The translations under genes and the position numbers were made by a program. The notes under the pieces were generated by a model, which was not told the origin of the DNA, did no database searches, and saw nothing but the letters and a program-made list of their open reading frames with translations. This document shows positions 15,133 to 24,278 of a stretch of DNA of 64,000 nt, piece by piece (within the stretch, counting starts at the first letter, position 1; each line of letters opens with the position of its first letter). The stretch comes from Tremella fuciformis (taxonomy: Eukaryota > Basidiomycota > Tremellomycetes > Tremellales > Tremellaceae), in the NCBI GenBank assembly GCA_032768795.1, contig CP136492.1:1364001-1428000 (forward strand). Reading direction: 5' to 3'.

Positions 15133-18100
15133 ATGGACGAGCTTGTTGTACCCCCAGAAACGCGCAGTGTCGCAGGAGGATCCTCGTCTGGCTCGCCATC
15201 GTCAGCAAGCGGGCCTCGTACTCCTCCGACCCCTCAGCCGCATCCTGCTTCCCCGACAACTCGTTTGAAGCGGAAAGCAGAGGACGTTGTCCCACTCGTC
15301 GACTCTGACGAGCATGAGACCGCTTCTCCTGCCCAGGAGGCGACTGTCGTCCCGCCGCCCAAGCCGAGATACCTTCAGCCTGCAGAATTGTCAGCTCTTG
15401 CCACACTCGATTGGAGATGCAAGCTGACCATCAGCTATCCCTTGAACAACGGGTCAACGATCACCAGTCGTGCGGCCGGCCCATGGGCCCGACCCGCGGA
15501 GGAGGAGCTGTCCCCGGAGGACGACCCAGATGCACACCGCGGGATACCGATCTTTCGGCCTAGCATGGAGGAGTTCAAGGTCAGCTCTCCTCCTCCAGGG
15601 ATGTAAAGCTGACATTTAGGACTTTGAGGGCTATGTCGAGCGAACGACTCCGTGGGGCGCTCGATCCGGCATCATCAAGATCATCCCTCCTCCTGAGTGG
15701 ACCGCCTCTCTTCCCCGCATCCCAAACCAGGCGCTTAATAACATATCTATATCTTCCCCAATACAGCAAACGATCCAAGGCTCTGGCGGCCTGTTTCGTG
15801 TCGTCAACGTCGAACGAAACAAGAACCGCCCGTTGACCGTCAAGGAGTGGTATGAGAAGTGCCAGTCGGAGAAGTTCGCTGGACCGGGACCGAAAGATAC
15901 GGACAGGAGCAGGGACAGGGATTTGGAAGCTTCCAAGAAGGCGAGAGCTGCGCAGCTTGAGGAGAGAAGGCGGAAACGAGAAGAACGGAGAAATGAAGCC
16001 GCCCGGAGGAGAGCTAAGAAAGAGGCAAAAGATGTTAAGATTGAAGAGGAGGGAACCTTTCCAGAGGCAGGCCCCTCGTCCTTCAGGACTTCACCTGAGC
16101 CCCAGGGCGTCGCAGACGAACACTTCGCGGACGGCGAGGACGACCTGCAGGTTCTGAAAGAGGAGAACATCCTCCCGGCATCGCAGCAGACGGAGGGGGA
16201 ATCCGGACCGTCTCACTCGAGGAGACCGCCGACGGCGGCCATGATGGAGCAACGACGGCAAACGGAGGCGCCATGGTACGAGACCTTTGATCCGTGGTCA
16301 GGATGGTTGCCAAGGGATACCTCGCCGTCCGACTACACCCCGGAAGCTTGTCATGAGATGGACAAGAAGTTCTGGAGGAAGATTGCAAGTGAAGGAGAAT
16401 CTAGCTGGTACGGCGCAGACTTGCAAGGTGAGCACACAACGTCATGTACGGGCAAGCGAGAGTATGCCCTTACTGGCAGGATCTCTCTTTCAAAACCAAG
16501 ATACGCCTTGGAATGTCTCGAACCTGCCAAACCTCCTCAACCGATGTCGCTTGACCAAAAAGCTGCCTGGTGTCAATACGCCTTACTTGTATTTCGGGAT
16601 GTGGGGTGCGACATTCGCCTACCATGTTGAGGATATGGACTTGTTCTCCATCAACTACATTCACTTTGGAGCGCCAAAGTTTTGGTATGCGATTCCCCAG
16701 GCGCAAGCGGAGAAGTTTGAAAGGACTATCGCACGTCAGTGTCAGCGGTGGACTGGACATTGTTGAGCTAAAATACTAGAATACTTCCCCTTGGAAGCCA
16801 AGTCTTGCGATCAATTTCTACGACATAAAGCTTTTACGATCTCACCCACTCGTCTGGCAGAACATCAGATACGCGTCAACATGCTTGTCCAGCATCAGAA
16901 CGAGTTTGTTATCACATTTCCCCGCGGGTATCACGCGGGATTCAACATGGGGTTCAATTGCGCCGAAAGTATCAACTTTGCTCTCGACAGTTGGATTGAG
17001 CTCGGCAGAAGGGCAAAGGTTTGCGATTGTGTGTCTCACAGGTATGTCCTCAGGAAACCTATTCTGCCACGTACCTAATGGGCTAGCGTGCGGATCAATG
17101 TCGACGAGATGTTAGCGGCTGAGGACGAGCTGGTCGAGGCGATTACGGAGGAAAGGCGCACCAAAAAGCGGAAGAGCAGGGCCGGAGAGGGTCGTTCAAT
17201 GGCGGCCAAACGCGAACCTCGAGACATCTCTGCAGACGGAGATGTTGCCATGGCCAATGCTCTTGAGAACGGAGGAACGCCCGAACGCCCAGGATTCCCC
17301 ATCAACGGCATGGACAAGCCGAAGAAGGTCACGCCAATCAGCAAGACAACCCGCAAATTGACAATCAAGGTCGAGCCGGTCTCTTACCCCTGCCTATTCT
17401 GCCCATCTGTTGAGGCTGAAGGCTTGACTGTAGTCGACGGAGCAGGCGAGGCTGTTCAGGCCCGTTCGAAGTCCCGCCAGCCAGGTCTCTTTGCTCATCA
17501 TTCCTGCGCAGTGGCAATACCTGAGGTGGGTTTGGATGACAAGGAGATCAATGGCGTCAAGGTCCCTGTGGTTGTGAATGTGGACGCCATCCCATCTGAT
17601 CGGTGGAACCTGGTCAGTCTTTTCGACAAGCACCCGGTGGCTGAGTTGACGTCAGAAATGCGTTATCTGCAAGGACAAGAAGCTTGCTGCTACCGGTGCC
17701 AAGATACAGTGCACTAAAGGCAAATGCCCCCGAGCGTTCCATGTCTCGTGCGCGCGCAACAGCGACGAGGTCAAACTGGAGGTTTTCCAAGTCCAGGATT
17801 GGCAGCCCTTGGCTATTCCGGAAGATGCGCCAGAGGGAACTCAGCCAGAGGTCATTCAGGTCGAATCGATTCGCGTCAACTGCCTCTGTCCTACACACAA
17901 CCCGGATATCATAAGCATCAAACGGCGCAAAGCAGAAGAGGCGCTCAAGGCAAATGTCCTGGCACTTTTGCCTGGGTCGAGGATCAAGCTCAAGGCATTT
18001 GGAAGCTGGTACGAAGCCACGCTTCTGGGCATCGACGAAGGCAATAAATCTGTCGAGGTTGTGGGTGTGAGCGGTCTGAAGACCATTGAGCCTTGGTCGC

Positions 18101-20217
18101 GGATCGAGTTCAGAGATCGAGAACCTGTCAAATTGTTGGAGAACGAGTACGCGAGGGTTCACACCCATACACGACGACCGACTGGTCCAACACCCGAGAA
18201 CACGATGCCGGGCCGGGCACCATTGCAAACGAGCGTTGAGCACCCATCGGCAGTGCAACAAGCTGCTCCGGCACATCGCACTCACCCTCCGCCTTTTGAC
18301 ACAAATGGGCACCGTCCGACCCCGCCATATCCACGATATCAGCCGCAACATATGATCGCGCCGCCGGCTTGGGCACCTGCGTCTAGTGGTAGTCATCCAA
18401 ACTACGTGTATCCGTCATATCCGCCTCCGCCCCCGGAATGGCAACATCGAGGCAACGTCCAATACATCCTCAACCATCAGTCACAGCCGCCAATCGATAC
18501 AAGGGTCCTGATATGTGATGCTCCGCCTCAGCTTCAACCGCATCGATCGATGCCAGGGCCAAGTCGCTATGCAAACCAGTATCCCAGCCCCTCGATCATG
18601 CACCCAATGCCAGCAGGCGTTGCCAGGCACAATCTCGTCGCTCAAGGTCAAGTGACGGCCTCTCCCGGGCACCCCGCAGCTTATACCTCATACGTGCCTT
18701 CCGGAGCGCAAGGGGATCACCGTCAAACGATCATGTCTGCTGGGCCGGGACCTTTGCCACCGCCCCCAGCACCGCCAGCGGCCGCCGGCAAGGGCCAGAT
18801 CAGCCTTGGACTTCAGAGGATGCAGGCAATTATGCGATTCCTACCTGACCTCGCGGTACCAGTCATACATCTGGCTGGCACCAACGGGAAGGGCTCTGTG
18901 TCTGCTATGCTTGAATCCGCCCTTTTGCGCTCCGGATTACGAGTGGGCCGATACAATTCGCCGCATCTGATCACGCCACGAGATGCCATACGGGTAAACG
19001 GCCGACCTCCGGCTGAGGAACATTACGCGATGGCTCTGCGCTACGTTTCAGGGCAATGTCGGCTCATCCTCGCGGAGCCCACTCCATTCGAGCTCGCAAC
19101 CGCGACGGCTCTACACCTGCTCAACACGGTCAGCCCGTCCCTCCAGGTGTTGATCGTTGAGTGTGGTATGGGCGGCGCACAAGATGCGACAAACATCATT
19201 CCGTCGCACCTGAAGATTGCCTGCGGCTTAACGTCGGTCGGGATGGACCACATGTCCTTCCTGGGTTCGACCATTGAAGCCATTGCGACCGAAAAGTCGC
19301 AGATCAGTGTCGAGGGCTGCCTCTTCTTCATAGCGCCGCAATCTCACGAGAATGCCGCCACTACCGCGCAGCGCGTCGCTCTCTCTCGGAAGGCGAGAGT
19401 TTTGCGTACCAACCCAGCCATCGTAACGGCTTTCACGGCGAATGGGAACCGATTGGCACTCACGAAATGCCCCGGGCTGCCTTCTTCCTCTTCGAAGTCT
19501 GATGTCCTGGCCCATGAGATTACAACGGAACTTCCGCTTCCTGGCGACCATCAACTTGGCAATCTGGCTTTGGCTGTGTCAATCCTGCACGCGATACGAT
19601 CAGACGTGCGTGCGACGTTCATTCAGCCGGATCTTGCCAATATCACCACCAACTCGATATGTGCTGGCGTGGCGTCGACCGTCTGGGAAGGGAGGTGTTC
19701 TTGCTTACGCATCCCCACGGCAAGCGCAGGTGGGCAAGGAATGTCAATACTGGTTGATGGAGCGCATAATGCCGACTCGGCCAAAGCCCTGCGGCAGTAC
19801 ATCGATTCGCTTCCGGCTCGACAGCAAGGGGACGTGTCGCCTGTCACCTTCATCCTAGGACTGTCGGCCTCGAAAGACAAGACGCCCGAGAGCGTTCTGC
19901 AACCCCTGCTGCGAGCTGGGGACCATGTCATTGCAACAACCTTCTCCCCGGTCGAAGGCATGCTTTGGGTCTCGCCCATTGACCCGGATACCGTCGTACA
20001 ATCGGCTCAGGCCATCGTAGGGGTCAAGGGAAATGTGCTTGCGGCGACAGATGTGGCGGATGCTTTGCGACGAGCAAATGCCGGCAGTCGATTGACAGTG
20101 GTCTGCGGCAGCCTTTATCTTGTGGCTGATCTCTACCGCCTGTTCCCTCCAGACAGTCTGAGGCCAAACGAGTTTATACCGAGGAGAGACGCAACGGCAC
20201 AGTTATGCCCGAGGTAG
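15133..20217 (+). CDS. JmjN-JmjC-ePHD histone demethylase fused in frame to dihydrofolate synthase
   Basis: Six exons (15133-15579, 15620-16427, 16480-16734, 16780-17041, 17087-17612, 17656-20217) give 1619 residues. JmjN about 136-175 (IPIFRPSMEEFKDFEGYV). JmjC: Fe ligands H467 and E469 in AYHVEDMD and H555 in GYHAGFN, 2-oxoglutarate lysine K485 in FGAPKFWY, so catalysis looks intact; KDM4/Rph1-type enzymes demethylate H3K9/K36. An extended PHD follows (YPCLFC..., then KCVICKDKKLAATGAKIQC joined by a 43-base intron) and a Tudor-like stretch (GSRIKLKAFGSWYEATL). A Pro/Tyr/His-rich linker leads without stop or splice signal into the folate enzyme (from about residue 1145). An in-frame ATG at 18733 could start that half separately. 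Demethylase confidence is high; co-translation of both halves is the open point. Confidence 0.85.
18790..20217 (+). other. Dihydrofolate synthase / folylpolyglutamate synthase domain of the fusion
   Basis: About 475 residues, full length compared with yeast Fol3. It opens with ISLGLQRMQAIMRFL, the position where stand-alone enzymes normally have their start Met, then P-loop AGTNGKGSVSAML, omega-loop NSPHLITPRDAIRV, ECGMGGAQDATN, VGMDHMSFLG, EKSQI, LPGDHQLGN, WEGR, VDGAHNADSAKAL and a SPVEGMLWV segment like the GMPW of Fol3. These enzymes ligate glutamate to dihydropteroate or folate using ATP. The family Arg in GGRxDATN is replaced by Ala-Gln. Nearest functional fit is the Fol3 (dihydrofolate synthase) branch rather than Met7. 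Confidence 0.85.
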
Positions 20218-21693: not shown

Positions 21694-24278
21694 ATGTGGG
21701 GCCGTGCGAGCGTCAGCAGAGCGCTGAGCCGCCGCAAGCATGGTTTGCGCGGTGTGACCACCCTCGCCGCAGCCCGGCAAGCCTGGGTCCGCCCCTCCGT
21801 ATGCTAGCGATAACGACGAGCTGAGAGACAGGGCGGCCGCCTGGTGCTCTCGGACGAAGTCGAGCATGCGCTCGCACACCGGCTCCCCATCATCGCGCTG
21901 GAGAGCACGATCATCTCGCACGGCATGCCACAGCCGACCAACCTCGACACGGCCCTCTCCGTGGAGAACATCATCCGCTCGGCTGGCGTGACCCCCGCGA
22001 CGATAGCGCTGCTCGACGGCCACGTGCACGTCGGCCTCTCTCGAGCGCAGCTAGAGCGTCTGGCTGACCTCACTGTGCAGGGGACCGTCAAGGTGTCCCG
22101 CCGGGACTTGGCGCCCGTCCTCGCGCAACGCCTGACGGGCGGCACGACCGTCGCGGGCACCATGGTCGTCGCGCACAGCGTGGGCATCGGCATGTTCGTC
22201 ACGGGCGGGATTGGCGGCGTGCACCGCGGCGCGGAGCAGAGCCTCGATGTGTCAGCGGACCTGACCGAGCTGGGACGCACGCCTGTCGCCGTCGTGTGCG
22301 CGGGCGCGAAGAGCATACTCGACATTCCCAAGACGCTCGAGTACCTCGAGACGCAAGGCGTGTGCGTGGCGACGTATGCGCCTACGCCTGACTTTCCGGC
22401 GTTCTACTCGCCCAAATCGGGCTTGAAGAGCCCGTGGCATGTACAGGATGCGCCGACGGCCGCGGCACTCATACGTGAGCAGCAAGCTTCCCGGCCAGAC
22501 TTTGAAGCTCACGACCGAAGATACATCTCAGACACTGCCAACGCCCTTGAGTACGCTGCTGGCTGTGCCTATACCTGAGCAGCATGCCGAGGCTGGCTTG
22601 AAAGTTCAAGAGGCAGTGGAGCAGGCTGTGAGGGAATCGATCGAGACGGGCATCGATAAGAGAGGCAAGGAGGTCACGCCTTGGCTTCTCGCACGCGTTG
22701 GACAGTTGACCAGGGGCACCGCTCTCGACCTCAGTGAGCGCTCCCTGTCGAAGCTTTCAATCGGCTCATCTACTGACTCATCCCAGATGTCAAGCTCATC
22801 GAGAACAACGCGAGAGTCGGGGCAGCTATCGCGCTCGAACTACAGCAGCTCCGCGAGCAGAGCACAGAAAATGCATCGAGTGCTCTTTATCGTTCGGCGA
22901 AGCCGGAAGACCTGACACCTATTTCGTCCACTAAACCTGACGATCCGACAACTTCCCCTGGATCCCCGGAGTCTGACTCTGCAAGATCTTTGCCAGCGCC
23001 CTCGGTCCTCGTATTCGGTTCGGCCGCCATCGACATCACTTCGACCTCCCCGACGCCACTTGACCCGCGCACAACTACCCCTGGAGAGATCTTCATATCT
23101 CCCGGCGGAGTAGGTCGCAACATCGCCGAGGCCGCACAGAGGTTGCTCCCGCCAGATGCGGTCCGGCTGGTCAGTGCATTTGGCACAACGCAGGAAAGGA
23201 ACGGGGTCGAGGACCCCGAGGTGCCGGACCCACTTGGTATTCTTTTACAGGCTGAGATGGCCATCTCGGGTTTGCGACTCGATGGGCTGTTCGGTCATCC
23301 TGGCGGACGCACGGCGGCCTGCTCGTTGACACTGGACAAGTCGGACTTGGTTGCGGGCGTGGCAGATATGGGCATCGTCGATGCCCTTACGCCGGACAAG
23401 GTGAGTGGGCTGTCAAGCATGACAGGAAGACGTGCTGTACTGACACGAAGATCACCCTTGCGATTGAGTCGGTCGAGCCGCCGCCCAAGATGGTGGCTTT
23501 CGACTTGAATCTGGCAGCATCGTCTGTCCAAGCGGTCCTTGCCACCTGCCAATCTCGAGGTATTGCCAGTACGTCCCTTCCTCTCAGGGAGTTGTAACAC
23601 TCTGACCATATAGCATTCTGCGACCCTACCTCGACGCCCAAGATCCCGCGGCTCAGTACCGCTCTCAAATCCCTCTTGCCTGCCCAGCCTACCGACCCCC
23701 GCCCACTCACCCACCTCTCGCCCAACATACTAGAGCTCGGGACACTGCAAGAGGCGCTCGTCGAATCGGCCGGCGACGTCGCATGGGAATACATCAACTC
23801 CCTCAACCTGGGGAACGAGTTCCGCCAGGCCGTTGCGCGACTCGCGTCAACCTCCATGGAGCCCGTTGGCCACGCGACCTATTCTCAGTGGACAACGCTG
23901 GGGTGGTTGACGCAGCTTGGCGTGGTACAGCAGGCAGTGTCGCTCTTGCCGTTCGTCGACAACTTGTGGATAAAAGCGGGCCCACTAGGCCTCGTACATG
24001 TCGGCATCGTGCCTCTGTTAAATGGCGCTGCGAGGGCAAGTGGACTGGCATATGCTCTCAGTGGCGCGCATGAGGGGAGGCAGCTGGTCGTCAGGCGCTA
24101 TGCTCCTCCGGTGATCACCGAGGACGAGATTGTCACTACGACCGGGGCGGGCGATACGCTTGTGGGCGGACTCATCGCTGGTTTGGTGGGAGATGAGGGT
24201 GTAAGCCCCGAGGTATGGGTCAAGGCTGCGATGGATGGAGTGGGCAGGACGATGCGGTCCAGGCGCGCGGTGGCATGA
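21694..24278 (+). CDS. Bifunctional pseudouridine-5'-phosphate glycosidase / pseudouridine kinase
   Basis: Six exons (21694-21798, 21832-22474, 22521-22733, 22787-23400, 23451-23568, 23614-24278) encode 785 residues. Residues about 40-330 are the glycosidase (IndA/PsuG type): ALESTIISHGMPQP, GTVKVSRRDL, TGGIGGVHRGAE, VVCAGAKSILDIPKTLEYL. Residues about 440-785 are a PfkB kinase: VFGSAAIDITS at the start and TTGAGDTLVGGLIAG with the catalytic Asp near the end. Together they phosphorylate pseudouridine and split the C-C glycosidic bond, feeding uracil and ribose-5-phosphate back. The first exon is Arg/Ser-rich (MWGRASVSRALSRRKHG), like a mitochondrial presequence. The first intron is only 33 bases. 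The fused order is known for fungi. Confidence 0.9.

What the first reader, a model, noticed from the sequence alone, without database searches (positions are those of the whole stretch)
15133..20217. Histone demethylase and dihydrofolate synthase in one reading frame
Seen: a JmjN-JmjC-ePHD demethylase with all Fe and 2-oxoglutarate residues and a full-length Fol3-type folate enzyme share one last exon (17656-20217) with no stop between them. The folate domain lacks its usual start Met, and a Pro-rich linker of a kind common in chromatin proteins leads into it. Known: JmjC demethylation releases formaldehyde at chromatin, tetrahydrofolate traps formaldehyde, and the demethylase LSD1 binds folate. 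Inference: a fused enzyme could build or retain polyglutamylated folate where formaldehyde is made, linking histone demethylation to one-carbon metabolism. I know of no described protein with this architecture.
Basis: partly seen in the sequence, partly recalled or inferred. Interest (0 to 1): 0.93.

Follow-up and report, generated by a model that had tools for sequence, protein, structure and literature searches.

The report
Histone demethylase fused to folate enzyme
In this yeast-like fungus one gene joins an enzyme that removes marks from histones to the only copy found of an enzyme needed to make folate, and the same joined gene is annotated across two orders of fungi, so the link looks old and real at the gene level, although what it is for has not been tested.

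Summary
One six-exon gene (15133-20217, +) encodes 1,619 aa (177 kDa): a KDM4/Rph1-type JmjN-JmjC-ePHD demethylase, a small beta fold, a ~220-residue disordered Pro-rich linker and a complete FOL3-type dihydrofolate synthase (DHFS), with no stop between them. No other DHFS was found in the held 28.1 Mb genome; the only other FolC hit reads as folylpolyglutamate synthase. The architecture recurs in 30 of 58 long FOL3 homologues, from seven named Tremellales and Trichosporonales genera. Trees of both halves fit one fusion at the base of these orders. The C. neoformans/gattii group has separate models nested inside; I read that as later fission. An internal start at ATG 18733 is not conserved. 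Metabolic coupling (formaldehyde capture, nuclear folate) is untested. Unexpectedly, in Naganishia the same enzyme is annotated behind a histone deacetylase. Paper searches showed nothing on the demethylase fusion. No RNA or protein evidence was available.

The parts
15133..15579 (+). exon 1, start ATG 15133; N-terminus and first part of JmjN
   Evidence: splice join; JmjN aa 139-172
15620..16427 (+). exon 2: rest of JmjN, charged stretch, approach to JmjC
16480..16734 (+). exon 3: JmjC core with H-V-E iron ligands and GAPKFWY
16780..17041 (+). exon 4: JmjC core with last His (GYHAGFN) and CDC zinc-site cysteines
17087..17612 (+). exon 5: first part of ePHD
17656..20217 (+). exon 6: end of ePHD, small beta fold, Pro-rich linker, complete DHFS, stop
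17965..18102 (+). small beta fold after the ePHD (exon-6 residues about 105-150), confident in the model; 'Tudor-like' is my inference, not tested by a search of its own
18118..18771 (+). Pro-rich linker, predicted disordered (exon-6 residues 156-373)
   Evidence: pLDDT under 50 in 156-256 and 260-373; frame open; 121 of 214 aligned linker residues identical in P0059
18733..18735 (+). nearest in-frame ATG before the DHFS domain, A at -3; not conserved
18790..20166 (+). folded dihydrofolate synthase (FOL3-type) domain

Best explanation
This is a genuine, old gene fusion. A KDM4/Rph1-type JmjC histone demethylase and the only dihydrofolate synthase found in the genome are encoded as one chain of 177 kDa, two independent enzymes held together by a flexible Pro-rich linker. 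It most likely arose once, in an ancestor of Tremellales and Trichosporonales, when the demethylase frame ran into its downstream neighbour FOL3, which lost its own start. The DHFS half still does its ordinary job (dihydropteroate + glutamate + ATP to dihydrofolate); the demethylase half still acts on histones. Because de novo folate synthesis needs DHFS and there seems to be one copy, a cell that makes folate must also make the demethylase, so the fusion was locked in by obligatory co-expression. Shown: the open frame, both domains with their active-site letters, no second DHFS found, conservation in relatives. Inferred: a single polypeptide in vivo, activity of both halves, the order of events, the locking-in. 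Not shown: any metabolic benefit of the link.
For: Continuous frame through one exon. Both halves intact by family, alignment and fold. No second DHFS found; FPGS-like, DHPS and DHFR sequences lie elsewhere. 30 of 58 long FOL3 homologues carry JmjC by Pfam as well, in seven named genera; 34 of 171 fetched FOL3-type proteins have the ePHD end or the NEYA motif upstream in the same chain. In the FOL3 tree an 87-row clade (SH-aLRT 100) holds every named Tremellales/Trichosporonales row; 35 of its rows, the window included, show the demethylase part. In the JmjC tree the fused proteins fall in one 34-row clade (93), with Naganishia, Phaffia and Mrakia unfused outside. In the closest relative (P0059) the linker stays in frame, 121 of 214 aligned positions identical, and the domain is 362 of 453 identical.
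Against: No transcript or protein data. Tremella mesenterica, the closest named relative, is annotated as two models (P0179, partial, and P0060); C. deuterogattii and C. depauperatus likewise; P0193, an unnamed 1,039-aa protein without a folate domain, also sits inside the fused JmjC clade. 52 of the 87 FOL3 rows show no demethylase part; apart from the named splits they are mostly short unnamed contig proteins whose upstream DNA I could not see. Many named fusions are automatic gene models; P0018, with an extra transcription factor, shows that such models can chain neighbours wrongly. Internal transcription starts are common in Cryptococcus (PMC11302930, passages).
Confidence: 0.72

Rival explanations
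1. One locus, two products: the long mRNA gives the demethylase (or the fusion), and an internal transcription start in the linker gives a separate DHFS from ATG 18733 or a similar start.
For: ATG 18733 lies 22 codons before the domain with A at -3. Stand-alone FOL3 models begin inside Pro-rich, linker-like sequence in T. mesenterica and C. deuterogattii. Close to 2,000 alternative starts inside coding sequences were reported in the two Cryptococcus species studied in PMC11302930 (passages).
Against: That Met is Leu in the closest relative, whose next in-frame Met is about 94 residues before the domain (counted by hand). In 4 of 28 fused sequences with a measurable linker the nearest Met is 113-190 residues away; in 5 of 28, the window included, it is within 30, so some species could use one.
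Confidence: 0.3
2. The fused chain is a metabolic device: DHFS is brought to chromatin so that folate made there can take up demethylation formaldehyde or feed local one-carbon use.
For: JmjC demethylases release formaldehyde (PMC8080763, passage); THF condenses with formaldehyde, LSD1 binds folate, and yeast Rph1, of the same demethylase family, is tied to SAM economy (PMC11375787, passages). The fusion is found across two orders. In Naganishia the DHFS is annotated behind another chromatin eraser, an HDAC.
Against: DHFS makes dihydrofolate, not THF, so DHFR must act in between. The C. neoformans/gattii group appears to live with the halves apart. Other FOL3 chains sit behind non-chromatin or unrecognised sequences. 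No localisation data.
Confidence: 0.15
3. The chain is made whole and then cut in the disordered linker, releasing cytosolic DHFS.
For: About 218 residues of predicted disorder between two compact folds; a short G-[VLA]-G-K stretch before the domain in many fused proteins (by eye).
Against: No protease site was tested; the GVGK stretch may simply be part of the folded start of the domain.
Confidence: 0.2
4. Artefact: two neighbour genes whose separating stop or intron was missed, here and in relatives.
For: Compact fungal genomes give chained models (P0018); polycistronic transcription involves up to 8% of transcribed genes in some Agaricomycetes (PMC4503453, abstract).
Against: In this window the frame is open in raw DNA with no intron needed. 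The linker aligns in frame to a relative with indels of 1-3 residues. The architecture recurs in seven named genera.
Confidence: 0.08

Closest known systems
KDM4 / Rph1-type JmjN-JmjC-ePHD histone demethylases
   Same: JmjN, JmjC with Fe and 2OG letters, ePHD; S. cerevisiae Rph1 (3opt) is the best PDB hit, E 1.4e-89
   Different: Among the best 120 of 3,738 hits listed, the folate Pfam PF27239 appears only in proteins of the fused group; Phaffia, Mrakia, Naganishia and Agaricomycete homologues lack it
FOL3 / FolC dihydrofolate synthases
   Same: Whole fold, P-loop GTNGKGS, LGLxR start, DGAHN
   Different: No start of its own; carried at the end of a chromatin protein
Naganishia HDAC-FOL3 chains (P0034-P0036)
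   Same: DHFS at the end of a histone-modifying enzyme
   Different: Partner is a histone deacetylase; a Naganishia KDM4-type protein is separate (P0237). Known from annotation only
Polycistronic transcripts of Agaricomycetes (PMC4503453, abstract read)
   Same: Neighbouring genes joined on one RNA; a possible origin
   Different: Here there is one frame with no stop between the halves
Plant and protist DHFR-TS (PMC5464667, start of abstract seen in the listing)
   Same: A folate enzyme in a bifunctional chain
   Different: There both halves belong to folate and thymidylate metabolism; here one half is a chromatin enzyme

Membership tests
KDM4/Rph1 histone demethylase | JmjN plus JmjC plus ePHD in this order | tested here: met
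   Pfam, each over its cut-off
KDM4/Rph1 histone demethylase | Fe ligands H-x-D/E...H and 2OG-binding Y/N/K | tested here: met
   Aligned with Rph1 3opt and KDM4B 7jm5; residue roles recalled
KDM4/Rph1 histone demethylase | Demethylates methylated H3 lysines | not testable with these tools
   Needs an enzyme assay
FOL3 dihydrofolate synthase | FolC fold over full length | tested here: met
FOL3 dihydrofolate synthase | P-loop GTNGKGS, DATN, Lys of EKS, DGAHN | tested here: met
   Sequence alignment with FolC proteins; roles recalled
FOL3 dihydrofolate synthase | Dihydropteroate-site start motif LGLxR (absent from FPGS-only enzymes, recalled) | tested here: met
   ISLGLQRM aligned with E. coli IDLGLERV
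FOL3 dihydrofolate synthase | DHFS activity | not testable with these tools
   Needs complementation of a yeast fol3 deletion or an assay
FPGS (MET7) | P-loop region GTKGKGS and no LGLxR start (recalled) | tested here: not met
   The fused domain has GTNGKGS and LGLxR; the C1 gene has GTKGKGS
Dicistronic read-through pair | Stop codon between the two frames | tested here: not met
   Frame open from 17650 to the stop at 20215-20217
Single bifunctional polypeptide | Full-length chain present in the cell | not testable with these tools
   No RNA or proteomic data here

The most novel reading that the evidence does not exclude
In Tremellomycetes the committed folate ligase has been anchored to chromatin at least twice, through a KDM4-type demethylase in Tremellales/Trichosporonales and a histone deacetylase in Naganishia (Filobasidiales). 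Histone 'erasers' and nuclear one-carbon supply are then physically coupled, for example to take up demethylation formaldehyde or to report folate status to chromatin.
Probability: 0.13. Interest if true: 0.92.

Novelty: new variant of a known kind. Interest (0 to 1): 0.72.

Why it matters
A chromatin eraser and an essential vitamin-pathway enzyme sharing one chain across two fungal orders is an architecture that my searches of the held paper library did not turn up. It makes an open question testable, whether folate chemistry is organised at chromatin, because nature has supplied fused species and, in the C. neoformans/gattii group, apparently split ones. It also means that DHFS, a fungal enzyme that humans lack (PMC6023522, passage), is encoded as part of a histone demethylase in these fungi, which matters for annotation and for reading knock-outs: removing the demethylase gene would also remove folate synthesis.

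Tried and rejected
Native C-terminal motif of unfused KDM4 proteins: I built a profile from 28 Agaricomycete tails, hoping to show that the motif had been replaced by DHFS. It hit 28 of 28 seeds but 0 of 61 other unfused, 0 of 32 fused and 0 of 4 split proteins, so it says nothing about the fusion; dropped.

Linker motifs (LRMDEMLNP; SRVVxCD): found in part of the 14 proteins looked at; not used.

Bacterial promoter/terminator scan of 18000-18900: nothing found, and not informative for a fungus.

Hidden stop or second DHFS: searched for, not found. These genome searches are six-frame and intron-blind, so a heavily split second copy, or one missing from the assembly, cannot be excluded.

Other known folds in the non-DHFS part of the exon-6 model: not listed, which says those parts were barely tested; no conclusion.

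Papers: ten searches. Seven bear on these enzymes or on such a fusion; one search returned none, and in the others no title or shown start of an abstract describes it. Only bears, loosely, on an HDAC-folate fusion. Subscription papers and preprints are not held.
Full report
What was checked. The window lies in a 28.1 Mb, 11-contig assembly. Its nearest named relative on both halves is Tremella mesenterica. The last exon, 17656-20217, holds the end of the ePHD finger, a small beta fold, a Pro-rich linker and a whole folate ligase in one open frame; no splicing is needed to join them.

The demethylase half. Pfam finds JmjN, JmjC and ePHD over their cut-offs. The closest solved structure by sequence is yeast Rph1 (3opt, E 1.4e-89), followed by human KDM4 proteins. 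The alignment keeps the H-V-E...H iron ligands, the Y, N and K letters of the 2-oxoglutarate site and the zinc-site cysteines and histidine (the roles of these letters are recalled). It is a KDM4/Rph1-type protein and looks active.

Is the fusion more than chance? A 660-nt linker stretch is open in 219 of 20,000 dinucleotide shuffles, which alone is modest. The strong evidence is comparative. A search with the folate half among long proteins gave 58 hits. Thirty of them also carry JmjC by Pfam, and two more (P0022, P0030) carry the ePHD end in the same chain. Named genera are Kwoniella, Cryptococcus, Naematelia and Kockovaella (Tremellales) and Vanrija, Cutaneotrichosporon and Cryptotrichosporon (Trichosporonales) (orders), plus an unnamed Tremellales species. 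The closest relative, an unnamed contig protein (P0059), keeps the linker in frame: 121 of 214 aligned linker residues are identical with ten gap columns, against 362 of 453 in the domain.

History. In the FOL3 tree (126 rows, quick search) every named Tremellales/Trichosporonales row falls into one clade of 87 rows (SH-aLRT 100), sister to a clade of 22 rows (100) that holds Naganishia. Of the 87 rows, 35 show the demethylase part in the same chain, the window included; the other 52 are the named split models and mostly short unnamed contig proteins whose upstream DNA I could not see. In the JmjC tree (53 rows, quick search) the fused proteins lie in one clade of 34 rows (93), with unfused Naganishia, Phaffia and Mrakia proteins outside. 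One fusion at the base of the two orders explains this. Some unfused models are nested inside: T. mesenterica, C. neoformans, C. deuterogattii, C. depauperatus and the unnamed P0193 (1,039 aa, ending in a Pro-rich tail).

The split cases. C. neoformans and C. deuterogattii have demethylase models of 1,279 and 1,269 residues with the Pro-rich tail and no folate domain; C. deuterogattii has a separate 529-residue DHFS model. A close relative of that DHFS, P0085, runs upstream of the start Met into 70 residues with 1% proline that do not look like the linker, which has 16-25% proline in the six fused proteins measured. T. mesenterica is annotated in two pieces on a contig of the same length, but its demethylase model is marked partial and its DHFS model starts in linker-like sequence; that may be a mis-split model. 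C. depauperatus and P0193 are undecided.

Does the folate half have its own start? The nearest in-frame ATG is 18733, 22 codons upstream, with A at -3. In P0059 this Met is Leu, and the next Met is about 94 residues before the domain (hand count). In 28 fused sequences with a measurable linker the nearest Met lies 1 to 190 residues before the domain: within 30 in 5 of 28, the window included, and beyond 110 in 4 of 28. So a nearby internal AUG is not a conserved feature, though some species could use one. Internal transcription starts are widespread in Cryptococcus (PMC11302930, passages), so a second, DHFS-only product is the main rival.

How it most likely works. Two complete enzymes are tethered by a flexible tail. 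The folate half supplies dihydrofolate as in any fungus; the demethylase half acts on histones. With one DHFS copy, loss of the fusion should stop folate synthesis unless a new start evolves, which is what seems to have happened in the C. neoformans/gattii group. This locking-in explains long retention without any benefit. A benefit is possible: JmjC enzymes release formaldehyde (PMC8080763, passage), tetrahydrofolate condenses with formaldehyde, LSD1 binds folate, and yeast Rph1 is linked to SAM economy (PMC11375787, passages). But DHFS makes dihydrofolate, not tetrahydrofolate or polyglutamates, and the split group suggests that the link can be dispensed with. I give a true metabolic coupling about 15%.

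A parallel. In Naganishia the same enzyme follows a histone deacetylase domain in three annotated proteins, P0034-P0036 (domain confirmed for P0036). Nine of nine rows of that clade share a K-[VI]-x-L-[KR]-F-[KR]-N-P tail before the folate domain (read by eye). Other sequences in the sister clade have it behind an AVL9-like protein (P0117, precomputed Pfam), a zinc-finger-like stretch (P0033, P0131, P0133; Pfam did not recognise it in P0033 and P0131) or a short hydrophobic stretch (P0118 and others). So FOL3 in this class tends to be carried behind other genes, and two of the several partners are histone erasers. That may be chance.

Known or new. The proteins sit in databases under automatic names such as '[histone H3]-trimethyl-L-lysine(9) demethylase'. 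Paper searches on the combination showed nothing. It is a new architecture made of known families.

Noticed in passing
P0034, P0035, P0036 (Naganishia) and P0129, P0132, P0134-P0136, P0139: Dihydrofolate synthase annotated behind a histone deacetylase domain in three proteins, with a shared tail motif before the folate domain in nine of nine rows of that clade; a second chromatin eraser as partner of the same enzyme.
   Followed up: partly
P0117, P0033, P0131, P0133, P0116, P0118, P0120-P0125, P0128: Further FOL3 chains in the sister clade start behind other sequences (AVL9-like, zinc-finger-like, hydrophobic stretch), so FOL3 without its own start may be common in Tremellomycetes.
   Followed up: partly
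P0085, P0068, P0070, P0180, P0181 (C. neoformans/gattii group): Apparent fission of the fused gene into a stand-alone DHFS and a demethylase that keeps the Pro-rich tail.
   Followed up: partly
P0044-P0047, P0037, P0038, P0042, P0054: Other annotated FOL3 chains: with tRNA-synthetase domains, a PF10307 domain, DNA topoisomerase I, squalene monooxygenase, a DUF218-type domain (PF02698); many may be chained gene models.
   Followed up: no
window 21800-23508: Adjacent gene on + looks like a pseudouridine glycosidase followed by a PfkB-type kinase in one gene (by eye from the frames; recalled as a known fungal arrangement).
   Followed up: no
G000:C8:992282-994159: A second JmjN/JmjC protein in the same genome; no FolC hit lies near it.
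   Followed up: no
one search list, rows 8r6s_Q and 8xzv_J: Mur-ligase-like folds are also listed in plastid RNA polymerase structures, another case of this fold inside a nucleic-acid machine.
   Followed up: no
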